Shown piece after piece: positions 37,540-45,058 of a DNA stretch of 64,000 nt. Within the stretch, counting starts at the first letter, position 1. Every line of letters begins with the position of its first letter. The DNA comes from an uncultured Arthrobacter sp. (lineage in GTDB: Bacteria > Actinomycetota > Actinomycetes > Actinomycetales > Micrococcaceae), in NCBI RefSeq assembly GCF_902805515.1, contig NZ_CADCTE010000144.1, positions 1-64,000 on the forward strand. Reading direction: 5' to 3'. A model generated the notes under the pieces. The model worked only from the letters and a program-made list of their open reading frames with translations, ran no database searches and had not been told where the DNA came from. Position numbers and translations under genes: made by a program.

Positions 37540-40059
37540 TCAGTTTTCGATGGTCACATCGGAGGGTTTCTTATCCGGCCGCCAGCCGCGCCAGACCGGG
37601 TGCCGCAGCCGGCCCCCGCCGGTGCGTTCGCTGTACTGGACTTCGCCGACGAGGGCCGGGCGCACCCAGCGCGCGTCCGCGGCGTCGGGGGCGGGGACGT
37701 CGGGCAGCGGCGCCGTCTTGCGGGCCATCTTCTTGAGCCGGCCGCCCACCTCGGCCAGCTCACGGTCGGTGAGCCCGGAGCCGACGCGGCCGAGGTACTT
37801 CAGGTTCACCCCGTCGGGCACCGCGACCAGGAGGGAGCCGATCTTCGAGGCGCGGTTACCCTTTCCCGGGCGCCAGCCCACCACCACCACCTCCTGGGTG
37901 CGCTGGTGCTTGATCTTCAGCCACGCCTCCGTGCGGGTTCCGGGGCGGTACACGCTGCCGCGGCGCTTGGCGACGATGCCCTCGAGCCCCAGGTCCCTAC
38001 TGGCCTCGACCGCTTCGGCCAGGGTGGCGTCAAGCTGCCCCGGCACCTGGACGTGCCCGTCCTCCGGGGCGCTGACGGCGCCCTCGAGGATCTCCCTGCG
38101 GTTGCTGTACCCCAGCGGGAGCAGGGAGGTGCCGTCGAGGTCGAGGAGGTCGAAGAGCATGAGCCGGACCGGTGTAATCGCCCGGGCGGCGTCGATCTCG
38201 GCGGCCGAGGTGAGTTTCATCCGGGTCTGCAGCAGGCTGAAGTCGGGCCGGCCGCCGGCGTTGAGGGCCACAATCTCGCCGTCGAGCACCGCCGTCTCGG
38301 CGTTCACATAGTCGGCGAGGTCCCCCAGCTCGGGGTAGAGCAGGCTCATGTCGTTGCCGTTGCGGCTGATCAGGCGCACGCCGCCGGCCGCGACGACGGC
38401 GATGGCCCGCACCCCGTCCCACTTCAGCTCGAACGCGAAGTCGGATTCATCGGGCAGGACCAAAGAGGAGGCCAGGGTCGCCAGCATAGGCGGCACGAAG
38501 TCCGGGGCGGCGCCGGGCCCGGCCGCCGGACGATCCCCCGGTGCAACCGGGACGGGGAGCCCGTCCGGGCCGGCCGCAGGGGTATCGGGCCCGCCGCCGT
38601 CGGAGGAGGCACCGGGTGAGGCACCGGAGGCGGTACCGGCCGGCTGGTCCTTCATGAGGTGGATGAGCCAGTTACGCGCTCCCGACCCGGAGCCGCCGGT
38701 GTTGATCAGGGCGTACCGCCGGACGGCGCTGCCCGAGCGCGCCAGGCCGCCGTCCTGTCTCCCGTACAGGGTGCAGATCACCTCCTTGCCGTCGCGCCAC
38801 TTTTCCAGTTCGTAGGTCCCCGCATCCCAGATGCTCATCTCGCCCGCACCGTATTCCCCCTTGGGAATACTTCCCTCAAAGGTCCCGTATTCCAGCGGGT
38901 GATCCTCCGTCTGGACGGCCAGGTGGTTCCGGTCCGGCGTGGCGGGCGGGCCCTTGGGCAGGGCCCACGAGACGAGCACGCCCTCTCGCTCCAGCCGGAG
39001 GTCATAGTGGAGGCGGCGCGCATGGTGTTCCTGGATGACGAAGCTGTTGCCCCCGGGCGGTCCGACGGTTTCCGGGACGGGCTCCGGGGTCCTGCCGGCG
39101 TCGCGCATGGCCCGGTACTGGCTCAGGCGGTCCGGGGCGGTGCCGGCACCGTCCTGCGGGTCCGGGTCGAGGCCGGCCAGGATGTCCCCGTGATCCTCGA
39201 CGCGCCGGAGCACCTCCCGGTAATCGAGGTGGGCCAGATCCGGGTCGTCCAGCTCGGCCCAGGTGCGCGGCGCGGCGACGGTCGGGTGGAAGCGTCCGCG
39301 CAGGGAATACGGCGCCACGGTGGTCTTGTTCCGGTTGTTCTGGCTCCAGTCCACCAGGACGCGCCCGCCGCGCAGGGACTTCTTCATGTCGCTGACCGCC
39401 AGGTCGGGGTGGTCGGTCTCAAGGGCGCGGGCCAGCTCGTGCGCGACGCCGGAGACCTGCTCGGAGGTCAGTGTCCCGTCCAGGCGGCAGTACAGGTGGA
39501 GGCCCTTGGAGCCGCTTGTCACCGGCCACGGCTCAAGGCCCATGCCGGTGAGGATCTCCCGGGCCAGCCGGGCGACCTCGGCGCATTCGGCCAGGCCCGC
39601 TCCCGGCCCGGGGTCGAGGTCGAGCACCATCCGGTCCGGGTTGCCCACCGCCGAGTGCGGGCCGAACCGCCATTGGGGCACATGGACCTCGAGGGCCCCG
39701 ATCTGCCCGAACCAGGTGAGGGTGGCCAGATCGTTCACCACCGGGTACACGTTCGTGTGGTCCTTGTGCCGGATCGGGTGGCGGGGCAGCCAGGCCGGAG
39801 CCGCGGCGTCGAGGTTCTTCTGGAAGAAGACCTGGCCGGGGGCGTCGGCGGTCCCCACGCCGTGCACCCACCGCTTGCGGGTCGCGGGCCGGTCACGGGC
39901 ATGCCGGATTAGGGGCTCGGCCACCGCCGCGTAGTACGCAAGCACATCGGCCTTGGTGGTGCCGGTTTCCGGGTACAGCACCTTGTCCAGGCTCGAGAGC
40001 CGCAGGGAACGCCCGTCAACCGTGACGGTCTGCACGCTGCGGGAACCCGGAAGAGCCAT
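37540..40059 (-). CDS. ligD: Multidomain ATP-dependent DNA ligase LigD (Pol-PE-Lig order)
   Basis: N-terminal PolDom ([41 protein letters not shown]), PE domain ([33 protein letters not shown]), ligase [15 protein letters not shown]. Confidence 0.96.
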
Positions 40060-40144
40060 TTCCCCAGTGTTGTCCGGATGGGCGCCGAATTCCACTAATG
40101 GACGGACTGTGGCCGCAGCGGGACGCCCCGCCCGGCGCGGCGCA

Positions 40145-40639
40145 TCAGGCCTTGAACTGGGAGGTGTACCGGTCGACGTAGACCTGCCAGAGGGCCGGAT
40201 CCTGGCCGAGGTCGCGCTCGTTGAGGTAGTCGTCGAGACCCATCAGGGTCAGGTGCCAGCCGGCAGCGGAAACGGCAATCTGGGCGGAATCCGCAGGGGA
40301 GATCGTCAGCACCAGCAGGGTGCCGCCGTCCTCCTGGCGCGTGAACTCCCACCGCAGGACCTCCCGGTCCCAGGTGAAGGCCAGCACCGTGGGCTTGGCG
40401 GCCTCAAGCACCGCGCCCTTCAGCGGGCGCTGGCCCGGCAGCTTGAAGATGACCTCGGCGTCCCGGCGCGGCAGGATGTCCATTTCGGCCGGGAACCAGT
40501 ACTTGAGCTTGCCCGGATCCGTCAGGTGCTTCCACATCACCGCCGGCGGAACAGCGAACCGCATCTCGAAGCGCAGGGCGGGTGCGCCGTCGTCGGTGGT
40601 GGTGCGGCTGGCTGTCGGTTCTGCGGTGGAGGAAGTCAC
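40145..40639 (-). CDS. SRPBCC/AHSA1-like domain protein
   Basis: LRFEMRFAVPPAVMWKHLTDPGKLKYWFPAEMDILPRRDAEVIFKLPGQ...LAFTWDREVLRWEFTRQEDGGTLLVLT...GWHLTLMGLDDYL. Confidence 0.9.
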   Translation of the reverse strand: MTSSTAEPTASRTTTDDGAPALRFEMRFAVPPAVMWKHLTDPGKLKYWFPAEMDILPRRDAEVIFKLPGQRPLKGAVLEAAKPTVLAFTWDREVLRWEFTRQEDGGTLLVLTISPADSAQIAVSAAGWHLTLMGLDDYLNERDLGQDPALWQVYVDRYTSQFKA

Positions 40640-40707
40640 CTATCCATCGTAGACCGCGGAAAAACCGGCTCTGGCTAGGTGTGCTGCCGGTGGTGTTCAC
40701 TAGTTCC

Positions 40708-41544
40708 ATGAGAGCCATCTGGAAGGGAGCCGTCGCGTTCGGGCTGGTGAACGTGCCCGTGAAGGTGTACAGCGCCACCGAAGACCACGACATCGGCCTC
40801 CACCAGGTCCACGATAAGGACGGCGGGCGGATCCGCTACCAGCGCCGGTGTGAAATCTGCGGGGAAGTGGTCGACTACAAGAACATCGACAAGGCCTACG
40901 ACGACGGCGAGCACACAGTGGTGCTGACGGAGGAGGACCTCGGCTCGCTCCCGGTCGAGAAAAGCCGCGAGATCGAGGTGGTCGAGTTCGTTCCCAGCGA
41001 CCAGATCGACCCCATCATGTACGACCGCTCCTACTACCTCGAGCCCGATTCGGCCTCCACCAAGGCCTACGTGCTGCTCCGCAAGACCCTCGAGGAGACC
41101 GACCGGACGGCGATCGTCCAGTTCTCCCTCCGGCAGAAGAGCCGGCTCGGGGCGCTGCGGGTCCGCGGCGAGGTCCTGATGCTCCAGTCGCTGCTCTGGG
41201 ATGACGAGGTCCGCGAGGCCTCCTTCCCCGCCCTCGAGGAAAAGGTGCGCATCTCCGCCAAGGAGAAGCAGATGTCCGCGGCCCTCGTCGATTCCTTCTC
41301 GACGGATTTCGATCCTGAGAACTTCACCGATGAGTATCAGGTGCAGCTGCGCACCCTGATCGACGCGAAGATCGAGAAGGGCGACACCCTGAGCACCGAG
41401 GAGACCTTCGGCGCGTCGGCGGAGGAGGACGACACCAATGTCCTCGACCTGATGGAGGCCCTGCGCCGCAGTCTCGAGAAAAACCGCGAGAAGAAGTCCG
41501 GCGGCAAGAAGGACTCGAGCAGTTCCAAGAAGAAGGGAGCGTAA
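40708..41544 (+). CDS. ku: NHEJ protein Ku
   Basis: MRAIWKGAVAFGLVNVPVKVYSATEDHDIGLHQVHDKDGGRIRYQRRCEICGEVVDYKNIDKAYDDGEHTVVLTEEDL; Lys-rich tail KKSGGKKDSSSSKKKGA. Confidence 0.98.
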   Translation: MRAIWKGAVAFGLVNVPVKVYSATEDHDIGLHQVHDKDGGRIRYQRRCEICGEVVDYKNIDKAYDDGEHTVVLTEEDLGSLPVEKSREIEVVEFVPSDQIDPIMYDRSYYLEPDSASTKAYVLLRKTLEETDRTAIVQFSLRQKSRLGALRVRGEVLMLQSLLWDDEVREASFPALEEKVRISAKEKQMSAALVDSFSTDFDPENFTDEYQVQLRTLIDAKIEKGDTLSTEETFGASAEEDDTNVLDLMEALRRSLEKNREKKSGGKKDSSSSKKKGA

Positions 41545-41789
41545 TGGGTTTCTTCACCGACTCCCACGGCAGGCAGGGCATCGCCCAGCGCCCAAATGCC
41601 CTGATCCTGGCCTGGGCCGGGCTGGGCGCGGCGTCCCTGATGGCACTGAAGGACGAAAACCGCAGGGTGCTCGGCCGGGCCAGCACCGCCAGCCTCGCCA
41701 TCTGGGCCGTCCTTGAGGCCGCCGACGGCGACAGCGGGTTCCGCAGGACCGCCGGAGCCCTGACCCTGGCCTGGCTGGTGCGGCGCTAG
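41544..41789 (+). CDS. Small hypothetical protein coupled to ku
   Basis: 81-aa [84 protein letters not shown]; start overlaps the ku stop (taatg). Confidence 0.65.
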
Positions 41790-43156
41790 CGTTCCTCGAA
41801 CACGTCGGGGACGCCGTCCCGGTCGGCGTCGACCGTCTCCTTGGCTTCGATCTGCCGGTAGTGGCGGTTGCGTGAGCGCAGGATGAACGATGCGGCGAAC
41901 GCGGCGAGGAGCGAGCCGATCAGCACCGCGACCTTCGCGTGGTCGTCCTCCGGGGTGCCCTGGCCGAAGCCGAGCTCCGCGATGAGCAGGGAGACGGTGA
42001 ACCCGATGCCGGCCAGCAGGGCGGCTCCGGCGATATCCACCCAGGACAGGTCGGGGTCCAGGTTGGCCTTTTCGGCCTTGGTCACGAGCCAGACCGCCAG
42101 CAGGATGCCGACCGGCTTTCCGACCACCAGTGCCAGGACGATACCCACGGCGATCGGGTCGGTGATGGCACTGAGGAACCCCGAGGCGCCGCCGATCGTC
42201 ACCCCCGCCGAGAAGAAAGCGAAGACCGGGACCGCGACACCTGCCGACAGGGGCCGGATGCGGTGCTCCATCGTGTCCGCCAGCCCCTCGGTCTCCGGCA
42301 CGGTGGAGCCTCCGGACTGGGCTTTCCGCGGGGGCCGGACCGGAACCGCAAAGCCCAGGAGGACTCCGGCGACGGTGGCGTGGACCCCCGAGGCGTGCAC
42401 CAGTGCCCAGACGATGAACCCGAGGGGCAGCAGGATCAGCCACGGGGCCGCCGCCTGGCGCTGGAAGAACCGGGAGAACCGGTGGGCGAGGAAGGCGTAG
42501 AGGGCGAGCGGAAGCACCGCCAGCAGCAGGGGCGGGGCGGCGATGTCCCCGGAATAGAAGAAGGCGATGATGCTGATGGCGATCAGGTCGTCCACGACGG
42601 CGAGGGTGAGCAGGAAGATCCGCAGGGCCCCGGGTAGGTGGGATCCGACGACGGCGAGCACCGCCAGGGCAAAGGCGATATCGGTGGCCGTGGGAATCGC
42701 CCACCCGCGCAGCGCGTCTGAGCCGCTGCCCAGGATCACCGCGACGTAGATCAGCGCGGGCACCACGACGCCGCCTACAGCGGCTGCCACCGGAACGATG
42801 GCCCGGTCGAAGCGTTTCAGGTCACCGGCGACGAACTCCCGCTTCAGTTCGAGCCCGGCGAGGAAGAAGAAGATGGCAAGCAGGCCGTCGGCCGCCCAGG
42901 CCCCGACGCTGAGTTCGAGGTGCAGCGGTTCGTAGCCGAATCTGGTGTCGCGCAGGGCGAAGTAGCCGTCGGCGGCGGGGGTGTTGGCGAGGATCAGTGC
43001 CAGCGTTGTGGCCAGGAGCAAAAGCGCTCCGCCCACCGTCTCCTTGCGCAGGATCGAGGAGATCCTTAGATGTTCGGGATAGCTGGCCCGGGCGAAGACC
43101 CGTTTGGCCGCGGGCCTGCCCGAGGGGTCTGTGGATGGGGAGGGGGTGGAGGACAA
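41786..43156 (-). CDS. nhaA: Na+/H+ antiporter NhaA
   Basis: [104 protein letters not shown] start. Confidence 0.97.
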
Positions 43157-43242
43157 AAAGAGCTCCTTGTGTCGGCGGTCGCTTGAGATAGCGCCGACCA
43201 GACTTCCCGGCTCACCACTAACCAGCCTACCCGGCGGAGCTG
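43157..43242 (-). promoter_or_regulatory. Structured 5' leader of nhaA, candidate riboswitch
   Basis: RNA-sense: agctccgccgggtaggctggttagtggtgagccgggaagtctggtcggcgctatctcaagcgaccgccgacacaaggagctctttt-TTG; 7-bp stem gtcggcg/cgccgac; agctcc can pair with ggagct overlapping the SD. Confidence 0.55.
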
Positions 43243-43306
43243 GTGATGCATACCGGGCGGTCCGCCGACAGCCGGCCCGGCGTGGCTGCCTGCGGCCGAT
43301 GCAGCA

Positions 43307-43975
43307 TCAGGCTTCGAGCTCCCGGGCAAGTTCCGGCAGTGCGGTGAGGACCAGATCGGGACGGCGGAAGGACGAGGGGTAGGGAGAGCCGCTGCGGTTC
43401 AGCCAGGCGGTGCGCATGCCCGCCCGTGCTGCCCCGTCGATGTCCCAGGGATGGGAGGCGATCAGCATCATGTCCTCGACCCCGGTGCCGCAGGCCCCGG
43501 CCGCGTAGCCGTACGCCAAGGGTGCGGGCTTCCACAGCGGTGCATCCTCCACTGAGAGGAACTTCTCGAAGCACCCCTCGATCCCGGCGCGCTGCGCGAG
43601 CCCTTCGGCGATGGCCGCCGCGCCGTTGGTCAGGGTGATGAGGCGGTGGCCGCTGTTGGTCAGCGCTTCGATGCCGGGGACGACGTCGTCGTGGACGCCG
43701 AGGCTCCGGAACCGGTCAAGCAGCAGCGTTACGGCGTCGTCGACGCTCCGGTTGAGGGGCTGTCCGGCCAGCACGGACCGGAGGGCATCCTCGGCCACGC
43801 CTGCGAAACGGGGATTGATGCCGGCGGCGGTCAGCGCGAAGCCGTCCCGCAGCAGGGATGCGAACCACCACCGGGCGGTTCCGTCCGAGCAGCCGATCCC
43901 GGCGAAGTGCCCGGCCATGGGCGAGAGGTCCGAGAGGGTTTCATTGACGTCGAAGACAAGCACCGTGGGGCGCAT
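43307..43975 (-). CDS. Haloacid dehalogenase type II-like HAD hydrolase
   Basis: TVLVFDVNETLSDLSPMAGHFAGIGCSDGTARWWFASLLRDGFALTAAG...LITLTNGAAAIAEGLAQRAGIEGCFEKFLSVEDAPLWKPAPLAYGYAA...MLIASHPWDIDGAARAGMRTAWLNR. Confidence 0.93.
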   Translation of the reverse strand: MRPTVLVFDVNETLSDLSPMAGHFAGIGCSDGTARWWFASLLRDGFALTAAGINPRFAGVAEDALRSVLAGQPLNRSVDDAVTLLLDRFRSLGVHDDVVPGIEALTNSGHRLITLTNGAAAIAEGLAQRAGIEGCFEKFLSVEDAPLWKPAPLAYGYAAGACGTGVEDMMLIASHPWDIDGAARAGMRTAWLNRSGSPYPSSFRRPDLVLTALPELARELEA

Positions 43976-44214: not shown

Positions 44215-44288
44215 GCCTGTGTAGCTCAGTCTGGTAGAGCATCCGCTTCACACGCGGAAGGCCCGGGGATCGAGGCCCCGCGCAGGCA
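44215..44288 (+). tRNA. tRNA-Val (anticodon CAC)
   Basis: gcctgtgtagctcagtctggtagagcatccgcttcacacgcggaaggcccggggatcgaggccccgcgcaggca; cloverleaf arms pair, anticodon loop ttCACac. Confidence 0.93.
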
Positions 44289-44293
44289 CTTCA

Positions 44294-44533: not shown

Positions 44534-44593
44534 TCTGATAGATGAAGAAAACCACCACCGTCGGTGGCCGTTGTGCGAAGGAGTTGTTTTCAA

Positions 44594-45058
44594 ATGGCCA
44601 TGAAGTTCGACCCGTTCCGGGAATTGGACCGCGTCGCCGGTGCGCTGCTGGATCCCCGGCAGGGGCTGCGCCTGATGCCCATGGACCTGTACCGCGAGGG
44701 CGACCACTACATCCTGACCGCCGACCTTCCGGGCATCGATCCGGGCTCCGTCGATATTGACGTCGACGGCCAGCTGCTCACCATCCGGGCCGAGCGCACT
44801 CTGCGCGGGGCCGAAGGGGTCAAGTGGCTGACCCGCGAGCGCGAGAGCGGATCCTTCCTCCGCCAGCTCAACCTCGGCCAGGGGATCGACATCGACGCCA
44901 TCTCGGCCCGTTACGAGAACGGCGTGCTGAGCGTCAACATCCCCGTGACCGAGCGGGCAAAGCCGCGGAAGATCGAGATCAGGTCGGGAACCGATTCCGA
45001 GGCCGTGAAGGGTGAGTCCGTCGAGGGCGGATCCGGGCAGAAGACCGTCGAAGCCTAG
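44594..45058 (+). CDS. Hsp20/alpha-crystallin family small heat shock protein
   Basis: MAMKFDPFRELDRVAGALLD...MPMDLYREGDHYILTADLPGIDPGSVDIDVDGQLLTIRAERTL...FLRQLNLGQGIDIDAISARYENGVLSVNIPVTERAKPRKIEI. Confidence 0.95.
   Translation: MAMKFDPFRELDRVAGALLDPRQGLRLMPMDLYREGDHYILTADLPGIDPGSVDIDVDGQLLTIRAERTLRGAEGVKWLTRERESGSFLRQLNLGQGIDIDAISARYENGVLSVNIPVTERAKPRKIEIRSGTDSEAVKGESVEGGSGQKTVEA

What the first reader, a model, noticed from the sequence alone, without database searches (positions are those of the whole stretch)
43157..43242. Structured nhaA leader with SD-sequestering potential: candidate cation riboswitch
RNA-sense leader agctccgccgggtaggctggttagtggtgagccgggaagtctggtcggcgctatctcaagcgaccgccgacacaaggagctcttttTTG. 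It has a 7-bp stem (gtcggcg/cgccgac), a purine-rich internal segment (gagccgggaagtctggt), and an upstream agctcc that can pair with ggagct overlapping the SD. nhaA genes are known to be controlled by Li+-sensing (nhaA-I/nhaA-II) riboswitches, and Na+-sensing classes also exist. Which class this is, if any, cannot be decided by eye.
Basis: partly seen in the sequence, partly recalled or inferred. Interest (0 to 1): 0.68.

Follow-up and report, generated by a model that had tools for sequence, protein, structure and literature searches.

The report
Unlisted actinobacterial nhaA leader RNA
The start of this salt-pump gene's message carries a tiny RNA hairpin, almost letter-for-letter the same in about two thirds of the sampled Actinomycetes genomes and placed before many ion-pump genes; it is not in the Rfam RNA catalogue and may be an unrecognised RNA sensor for sodium or a related signal.

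Summary
The core is 24 nt, GGNGNGCCGGGAAGNCUGGUCGGC (window 43216-43193, minus strand). It sits just after a TAnnnT -10 box, so it should be the 5' end of the mRNA. It recurs in 264/395 sampled Actinomycetes genomes (1-8 copies each). Of 260 downstream genes, 163 are NhaA; others are CPA1, Mrp, CitMHS/ArsB, Na/Ca exchanger, P-type ATPase and H-PPase genes. Hairpin GCCG/CGGC is supported by compensatory changes at 3 of 4 pairs. A competing helix, GGUCGGC/GUCGACC, is strongly enriched just before the Shine-Dalgarno. Rfam 15 has no family for it; nhaA-I, nhaA-II and DUF1646 do not match. Best reading: a new, compact cis-regulatory RNA class, probably a cation (Na+) riboswitch. Shown here: conservation, P1, gene association. 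Inferred: ligand, switching direction. Main caveats: no binding or expression data, and the literature search covered only open-licence papers.

The parts
43224..43229 (-). -10 box TAGGCT of the predicted nhaA promoter
   Evidence: TANNNT ends 6-10 nt upstream of the core in 215 of 273 instances, peak at 7 nt, near zero elsewhere; present here with 7 nt
43193..43216 (-). conserved 24-nt core GGTGAGCCGGGAAGTCTGGTCGGC, predicted 5' end of the mRNA
   Evidence: exact 21-mer >=119 hits; flanking GG invariant in 113/113 non-redundant instances though not in the query; 264/395 class genomes; all 25 genomes of the genus
43208..43211 (-). P1 5' arm GCCG
   Evidence: compensatory variants GTCG/CGAC, TCCG/CGGA, GCTG/CAGC, GGCG/CGCC
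43197..43207 (-). P1 loop GGAAGTCTGGT (consensus GGAAGNCUGGU), near-invariant
   Evidence: alignment A1
43193..43196 (-). P1 3' arm CGGC
   Evidence: 99.5% of cells paired, 3 of 4 pairs with two-sided changes
43192..43198 (-). 5' strand of competing helix P2 (GUCGGCG here), overlaps P1 3' arm
43171..43177 (-). 3' strand of competing helix P2 (CGCCGAC here), ending 2 nt before the SD
   Evidence: CGACC is the most enriched 5-mer and GACC the most enriched 4-mer between core and SD across 192 leaders
43163..43168 (-). Shine-Dalgarno AAGGAG
   Evidence: sequence; SD and TTG start conserved in two congeners, L316 and L329
41786..43156 (-). nhaA, Na+/H+ antiporter NhaA, 456 aa, TTG start
   Evidence: Pfam PF06965 E 5.4e-125

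Best explanation
A short cis-regulatory RNA class at the very 5' end of actinobacterial mRNAs for Na+/H+ antiporters and related ion-homeostasis genes. The first 24 nt fold into hairpin P1 (GCCG/CGGC) with a near-invariant 11-nt loop, GGAAGNCUGGU, which is the presumed ligand-binding part. Nucleotides 18-24 (GGUCGGC) can instead pair with a downstream strand of GUCGACC type placed just before the Shine-Dalgarno (P2). P1 and P2 exclude each other, so the RNA is built as a switch. Most likely it senses an alkali cation, Na+ first, directly. Binding would stabilise P1 during transcription, block P2 and thereby change translation of the pump gene, presumably switching it on. Shown here: conservation, promoter position, P1 covariation, P2 enrichment, gene association. 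Inferred: that the sensor is the RNA itself, that the ligand is Na+, and the ON direction.
For: At least 119 exact 21-mer hits in GTDB genomes. 264/395 Actinomycetes genomes, with only a handful of matches of the reversed control pattern. TANNNT box 6-10 nt before the core in 215/273 cases. P1: a search with the arms left free returned 56 sites in 397 genomes with no control hits; all six with a non-GCCG 5' arm carry the matching 3' arm. Covariation score 0.163 vs 0.051 shuffled, 0/500. P2: GACC 101 vs 45.9 expected, z 10.8, first of the 4-mers ranked; CGACC 77 vs 25.7, z 12.8; complementarity peaks at core nt 17-24. P1 costs more in real leaders than with shuffled downstream sequence (median 9.9 vs 7.4 kcal/mol). 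Genes: 163 NhaA, 15 CPA1, 15 MrpA-type, 6 CitMHS/ArsB, 4 Na/Ca exchanger, plus P-type ATPase and H-PPase among 260. Divergent ion-transport genes each carry their own oriented copy (L293, L294, L296).
Against: No ligand, expression or start-site data. Some targets are not obviously sodium-related (STAS, DUF2254, DUF998, flotillin, NfeD, Crp-like). Thermodynamic modelling does not show that forming P1 exposes the SD (mean change -0.02). P2's 5' strand is nearly invariant, so P2 rests on enrichment and not on covariation. A 24-nt aptamer is very small.
Confidence: 0.5

Rival explanations
1. A cis-regulatory RNA hairpin recognised by a protein (or paired by a trans-acting RNA) that responds to salt, pH or membrane stress, not a riboswitch.
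For: Very small hairpin with a near-invariant loop; targets include stress-type genes (STAS, Crp-like, flotillin, NfeD); many copies per genome (nine in G166), which suits a regulon.
Against: No candidate protein identified; the competing helix next to the SD is typical of a self-contained switch; the gene set is centred on cation antiporters, as for known cation riboswitches (PMC9337991, PMC9646797).
Confidence: 0.25
2. A cation riboswitch whose ligand is Li+ or H+ (pH), not Na+.
For: NhaA and CPA1 are H+ antiporters; the known nhaA-linked riboswitches nhaA-I and nhaA-II sense Li+ (PMC9646797).
Against: Li+ is rare and the motif is very widespread; Mrp, Na/Ca exchanger and P-type ATPase associations fit Na+ or general ion balance better. 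Inference only.
Confidence: 0.15
3. A double-stranded DNA operator at +1 to +24 for a conserved transcription factor.
For: Extreme sequence conservation at a nearly fixed distance from the -10 box.
Against: Compensatory changes across an asymmetric 11-bp interval; copies oriented with the gene, and divergent genes carry two separate copies 0.1-0.4 kb apart; the complement of the core's 3' part is enriched downstream up to the SD.
Confidence: 0.1

Closest known systems
nhaA-I motif / Li+-I riboswitch (Rfam RF03057)
   Same: Precedes nhaA; starts with GGGUG and contains UGGUCGG in its P2, as does this core (GGUG..., UGGUCGG; consensus seen in L339, L340); thought to act mainly at the ribosome binding site (PMC9646797).
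   Different: No Rfam match to any member tested, and no over-cut-off match in 39 related genomes. nhaA-I is 55 nt with two consecutive hairpins; this core is 24 nt with one covarying hairpin and an overlapping competing helix. The cited papers do not mention Actinobacteria.
DUF1646 motif / Na+-I riboswitch
   Same: Associated with cation-transport genes; Na+-selective, switches gene expression (PMC9337991).
   Different: No Rfam match; reported in Firmicutes, Proteobacteria, Acidobacteria and Verrucomicrobia with 308 examples and two extended stems.
nhaA-II motif / Li+-II riboswitch
   Same: Leader RNA before nhaA; Li+ sensor (PMC9646797).
   Different: No Rfam match; consensus not compared letter by letter here.
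nqrA-II motif
   Same: Candidate Na+-related leader RNA found by comparative analysis (PMC11109978).
   Different: Restricted to Pasteurellaceae, four stem-loops, nqrA genes.

Membership tests
nhaA-I (RF03057) | match to the Rfam covariance model (two hairpins, GGGUGC...GCAGGU...UGGUCGGGCCGCCA) | tested here: not met
   no match at E<=10 in window 43060-43320 nor at E<=0.5 in 20 diverse loci; 0 of 39 related genomes over cut-off, and the own-genome weak hits lie elsewhere; positive controls L339, L340 scored 42.1 bits
nhaA-II (Rfam) | match to the Rfam covariance model | tested here: not met
   whole-library scans
DUF1646 / Na+-I (Rfam) | match to the Rfam covariance model | tested here: not met
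   whole-library scans
any Rfam 15 family | over-threshold match at the core | tested here: not met
   gathering; relaxed; sub-threshold chance matches only, e.g. radC in L136 (29.3 bits, cut-off 40) and Proteo-phage-1 in the window (14.6 bits, cut-off 42)
structured cis-regulatory RNA (general) | conserved secondary structure with covariation | tested here: met
   P1: 3 of 4 pairs with two-sided changes, 99.5% of cells paired
structured cis-regulatory RNA (general) | in the 5' leader, consistent orientation, shared gene function | tested here: met
riboswitch | expression platform mutually exclusive with the aptamer fold | tested here: inconclusive
   competing helix enriched but modelled SD accessibility does not rise when P1 is forced
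riboswitch | direct, selective ligand binding | not testable with these tools
   needs in-line probing, SHAPE or calorimetry

The most novel reading that the evidence does not exclude
A new, very compact and unusually widespread riboswitch class for an alkali cation (Na+), the default ion sensor of Actinomycetes, controlling NhaA, Mrp, CPA1 and other ion-homeostasis genes, overlooked because the leader is short and lies at the transcript's 5' end.
Probability: 0.4. Interest if true: 0.88.

Novelty: new variant of a known kind. Interest (0 to 1): 0.74.

Why it matters
If true, two thirds of sampled Actinomycetes (with examples in Streptomyces, Nocardia, Rhodococcus and Arthrobacter) share a tiny RNA that governs sodium and ion balance, and it is absent from Rfam. 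It would give a directly testable answer to how these bacteria sense sodium, add a very small aptamer to the known ones, and explain the control of salt-stress genes in soil and industrial strains. Even if the sensor is a protein, the motif defines an unannotated ion-homeostasis regulon.

Tried and rejected
(2) Membership in nhaA-I, nhaA-II or DUF1646: no match. (3) Pairing of the 5' GGNGN with downstream sequence: no better than permuted. (4) H-type pseudoknot with loop UGGU pairing downstream ACC: not favoured, because the enrichment extends to CGACC and GUCGAC, which compete with P1. (5) P1 exposing the SD: not supported by modelling. (6) Intrinsic terminator: none found. (7) Phage origin: 0 matches in IMG/VR. 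(8) General homology of nhaA upstream regions as the cause: the second nhaA of the same genome lacks the motif in the upstream sequence inspected, and unrelated genes carry it. (10) Literature: ten searches and several papers, including a search for the core sequence itself, found nothing on this motif; the 2017 paper on 224 motifs is not held.

Full report
Observation. The quoted leader is present at 43242-43154 on the minus strand, directly upstream of an ORF (41786-43156, TTG start) that is NhaA by Pfam (PF06965, 417.6 bits). The upstream gene is a HAD hydrolase (43307-43975, minus).

Conservation. My estimate of the chance expectation is below one (2 x 2.57e11 / 4^21 = 0.12; similar with GC bias). 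Nearly all of the titles listed are Actinomycetota (including Solirubrobacterales and Acidimicrobiia), with one Dormibacterota MAG. After removing redundancy, two preceding bases that were not in the query are GG in 113/113, and conservation drops sharply on both sides. The core is therefore 24 nt: GG[N]G[N]GCCGGGAAG[N]C[U/g]GGUCGGC. With up to three mismatches allowed, 103/397 phylum genomes match. With four stem positions and other variable positions left free, 264/395 genomes of the class match, up to eight per genome. All 25 genomes of the window's own genus in the relatives search match. A covariance model shows a sharp gap between most members (about 36-43 bits) and background (below about 30 bits), so this is a discrete family. 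No match occurs in 2.9 million IMG/VR contigs.

Position. A TAnnnT hexamer ends 6-10 nt upstream of the core in 215/273 instances, peaking at 7 nt and near zero elsewhere. In the window it is TAGGCT, 43229-43224. The core thus begins at the predicted transcription start (inferred from promoter position; no start-site data).

Structure P1. The arms GCCG and CGGC change together: GTCG/CGAC (four promoter-supported cases), TCCG/CGGA (two), GCTG/CAGC (one), and GGCG/CGCC (one, without a TAnnnT match). A search that fixed only the -10 box, the 5' GGNG and the loop left the arms free. It found 56 sites with no control hits, and all six with a different 5' arm carry the matching 3' arm (arms). Counting pairs on 46 distinct cores: 99.5% of cells paired, two-sided changes at 3 of 4 pairs, no one-sided standard changes, one unpaired cell, covariation 0.163 vs 0.051 shuffled (0/500), and no slid register comparable. 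The shuffle control does not correct for relatedness, but the variants occur in different families. This is good evidence for an RNA hairpin with loop GGAAGNCUGGU.

Structure P2. Between core and Shine-Dalgarno in 192 non-redundant leaders, GACC has the highest z of the 4-mers ranked (101 observed vs 45.9 expected from dinucleotide-model shuffles, z 10.8), and CGACC the highest among the 5-mers tested (77 vs 25.7, z 12.8), followed by TCGAC, GACCC and GTCGA. Duplex energies against downstream sequence are lowest relative to shuffles for core nt 17-24 (mean z -1.05 +/- 0.08) and weaker for other segments. GGUCGGC/GUCGACC overlaps the 3' arm of P1, so P1 and P2 exclude each other. GACC most often ends 0-4 nt before the SD. 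Unconstrained folding prefers pairing of the core's GG downstream (probability above 0.5 in 138/176) and almost never P1; real leaders oppose P1 more than shuffled ones (median 9.9 vs 7.4 kcal/mol). However, forcing P1 does not raise predicted SD accessibility, so the direction of control remains inferred. No terminator is present.

Genes. Of 260 instances with a coding-like ORF downstream on the same strand, 163 are in the NhaA cluster. Others are 15 CPA1 (PF00999), 15 MrpA-type (PF00361, MbhD/MbhE), 8 DUF2254, 9 CBS-domain, 6 CitMHS/ArsB, 5 ABC ATPases (DrrA-like C terminus), 4 Na/Ca exchangers, 4 DUF998, 4 permease-like proteins (by eye only; no Pfam hit for the one scanned), 2 P-type ATPases, a few STAS and two Crp-like, 2 NfeD-type, and single H-PPase and flotillin genes. 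Cluster sizes are from single-linkage BLAST, with representatives checked by Pfam. The own genome has two nhaA genes, and the upstream sequence inspected for the second lacks the motif. Neighbouring divergent genes carry separate, oppositely oriented copies about 0.1-0.4 kb apart (L293, L294, L296), which argues for a per-transcript RNA function over a shared DNA operator.

Known families. Rfam 15 gives no family at the core in the window or in 20 diverse loci at E<=0.5, apart from sub-threshold chance matches such as radC in L136. The nhaA-I model gives no over-cut-off match in 39 related genomes, while it does recognise proteobacterial nhaA leaders (L339, L340). The nhaA-I consensus shares a GGUG start and the string UGGUCGG with this core; this is a lead for convergence or distant relationship, not membership. 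Papers on Na+-I, Na+-II, Li+-I and Li+-II riboswitches (PMC9337991, PMC9646797) do not mention Actinobacteria, and other searches of the open literature found no report of this motif. Subscription papers, including the 2017 catalogue of 224 motifs, could not be read.

Judgement. Structured, conserved cis-regulatory RNA: about 0.93. A ligand-sensing riboswitch: about 0.6. Ligand Na+: about 0.4. Rivals are a protein-bound RNA hairpin, a Li+ or pH sensor, and (least likely) a DNA operator.

Noticed in passing
window 37540-41544: A LigD-like ATP-dependent DNA ligase ORF (minus, 37540-40095) next to a Ku-like ORF (plus, 40582-41544), suggesting a bacterial non-homologous end-joining locus; named from the translations, no family search run.
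   Followed up: no
window 44215-44289: tRNA-Val (CAC) gene on the plus strand with a GC-rich inverted repeat and T run just downstream; beyond it a small heat-shock protein-like ORF (44564-45058).
   Followed up: partly
L334 (G000:C56:47994-49166): Second nhaA gene of the same genome lacks the motif in the upstream sequence inspected; in one other genome (G482) a longer NhaA reading frame (about 630 aa) also has no listed core nearby, so the motif may mark one NhaA subtype.
   Followed up: partly
L293, L294, L296: Divergently transcribed genes each carry their own copy of the core, about 0.1-0.4 kb apart and in opposite orientation.
   Followed up: yes
L202 201 and 526; L203 201 and 705: Two tandem copies of the core within 0.3-0.5 kb in one large-genome member of the class (G166), before small ORFs including a STAS-domain protein.
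   Followed up: partly
L339 790-844; L340 643-696: nhaA-I (Li+-I riboswitch) members upstream of nhaA on Novosphingobium and Bradyrhizobium plasmids (42.1 bits each).
   Followed up: yes
L337 1423-1446: The core also precedes nhaA on a plasmid of Arthrobacter sp. D5-1 (pAD51) typed as conjugative, so the leader can travel with its gene.
   Followed up: partly
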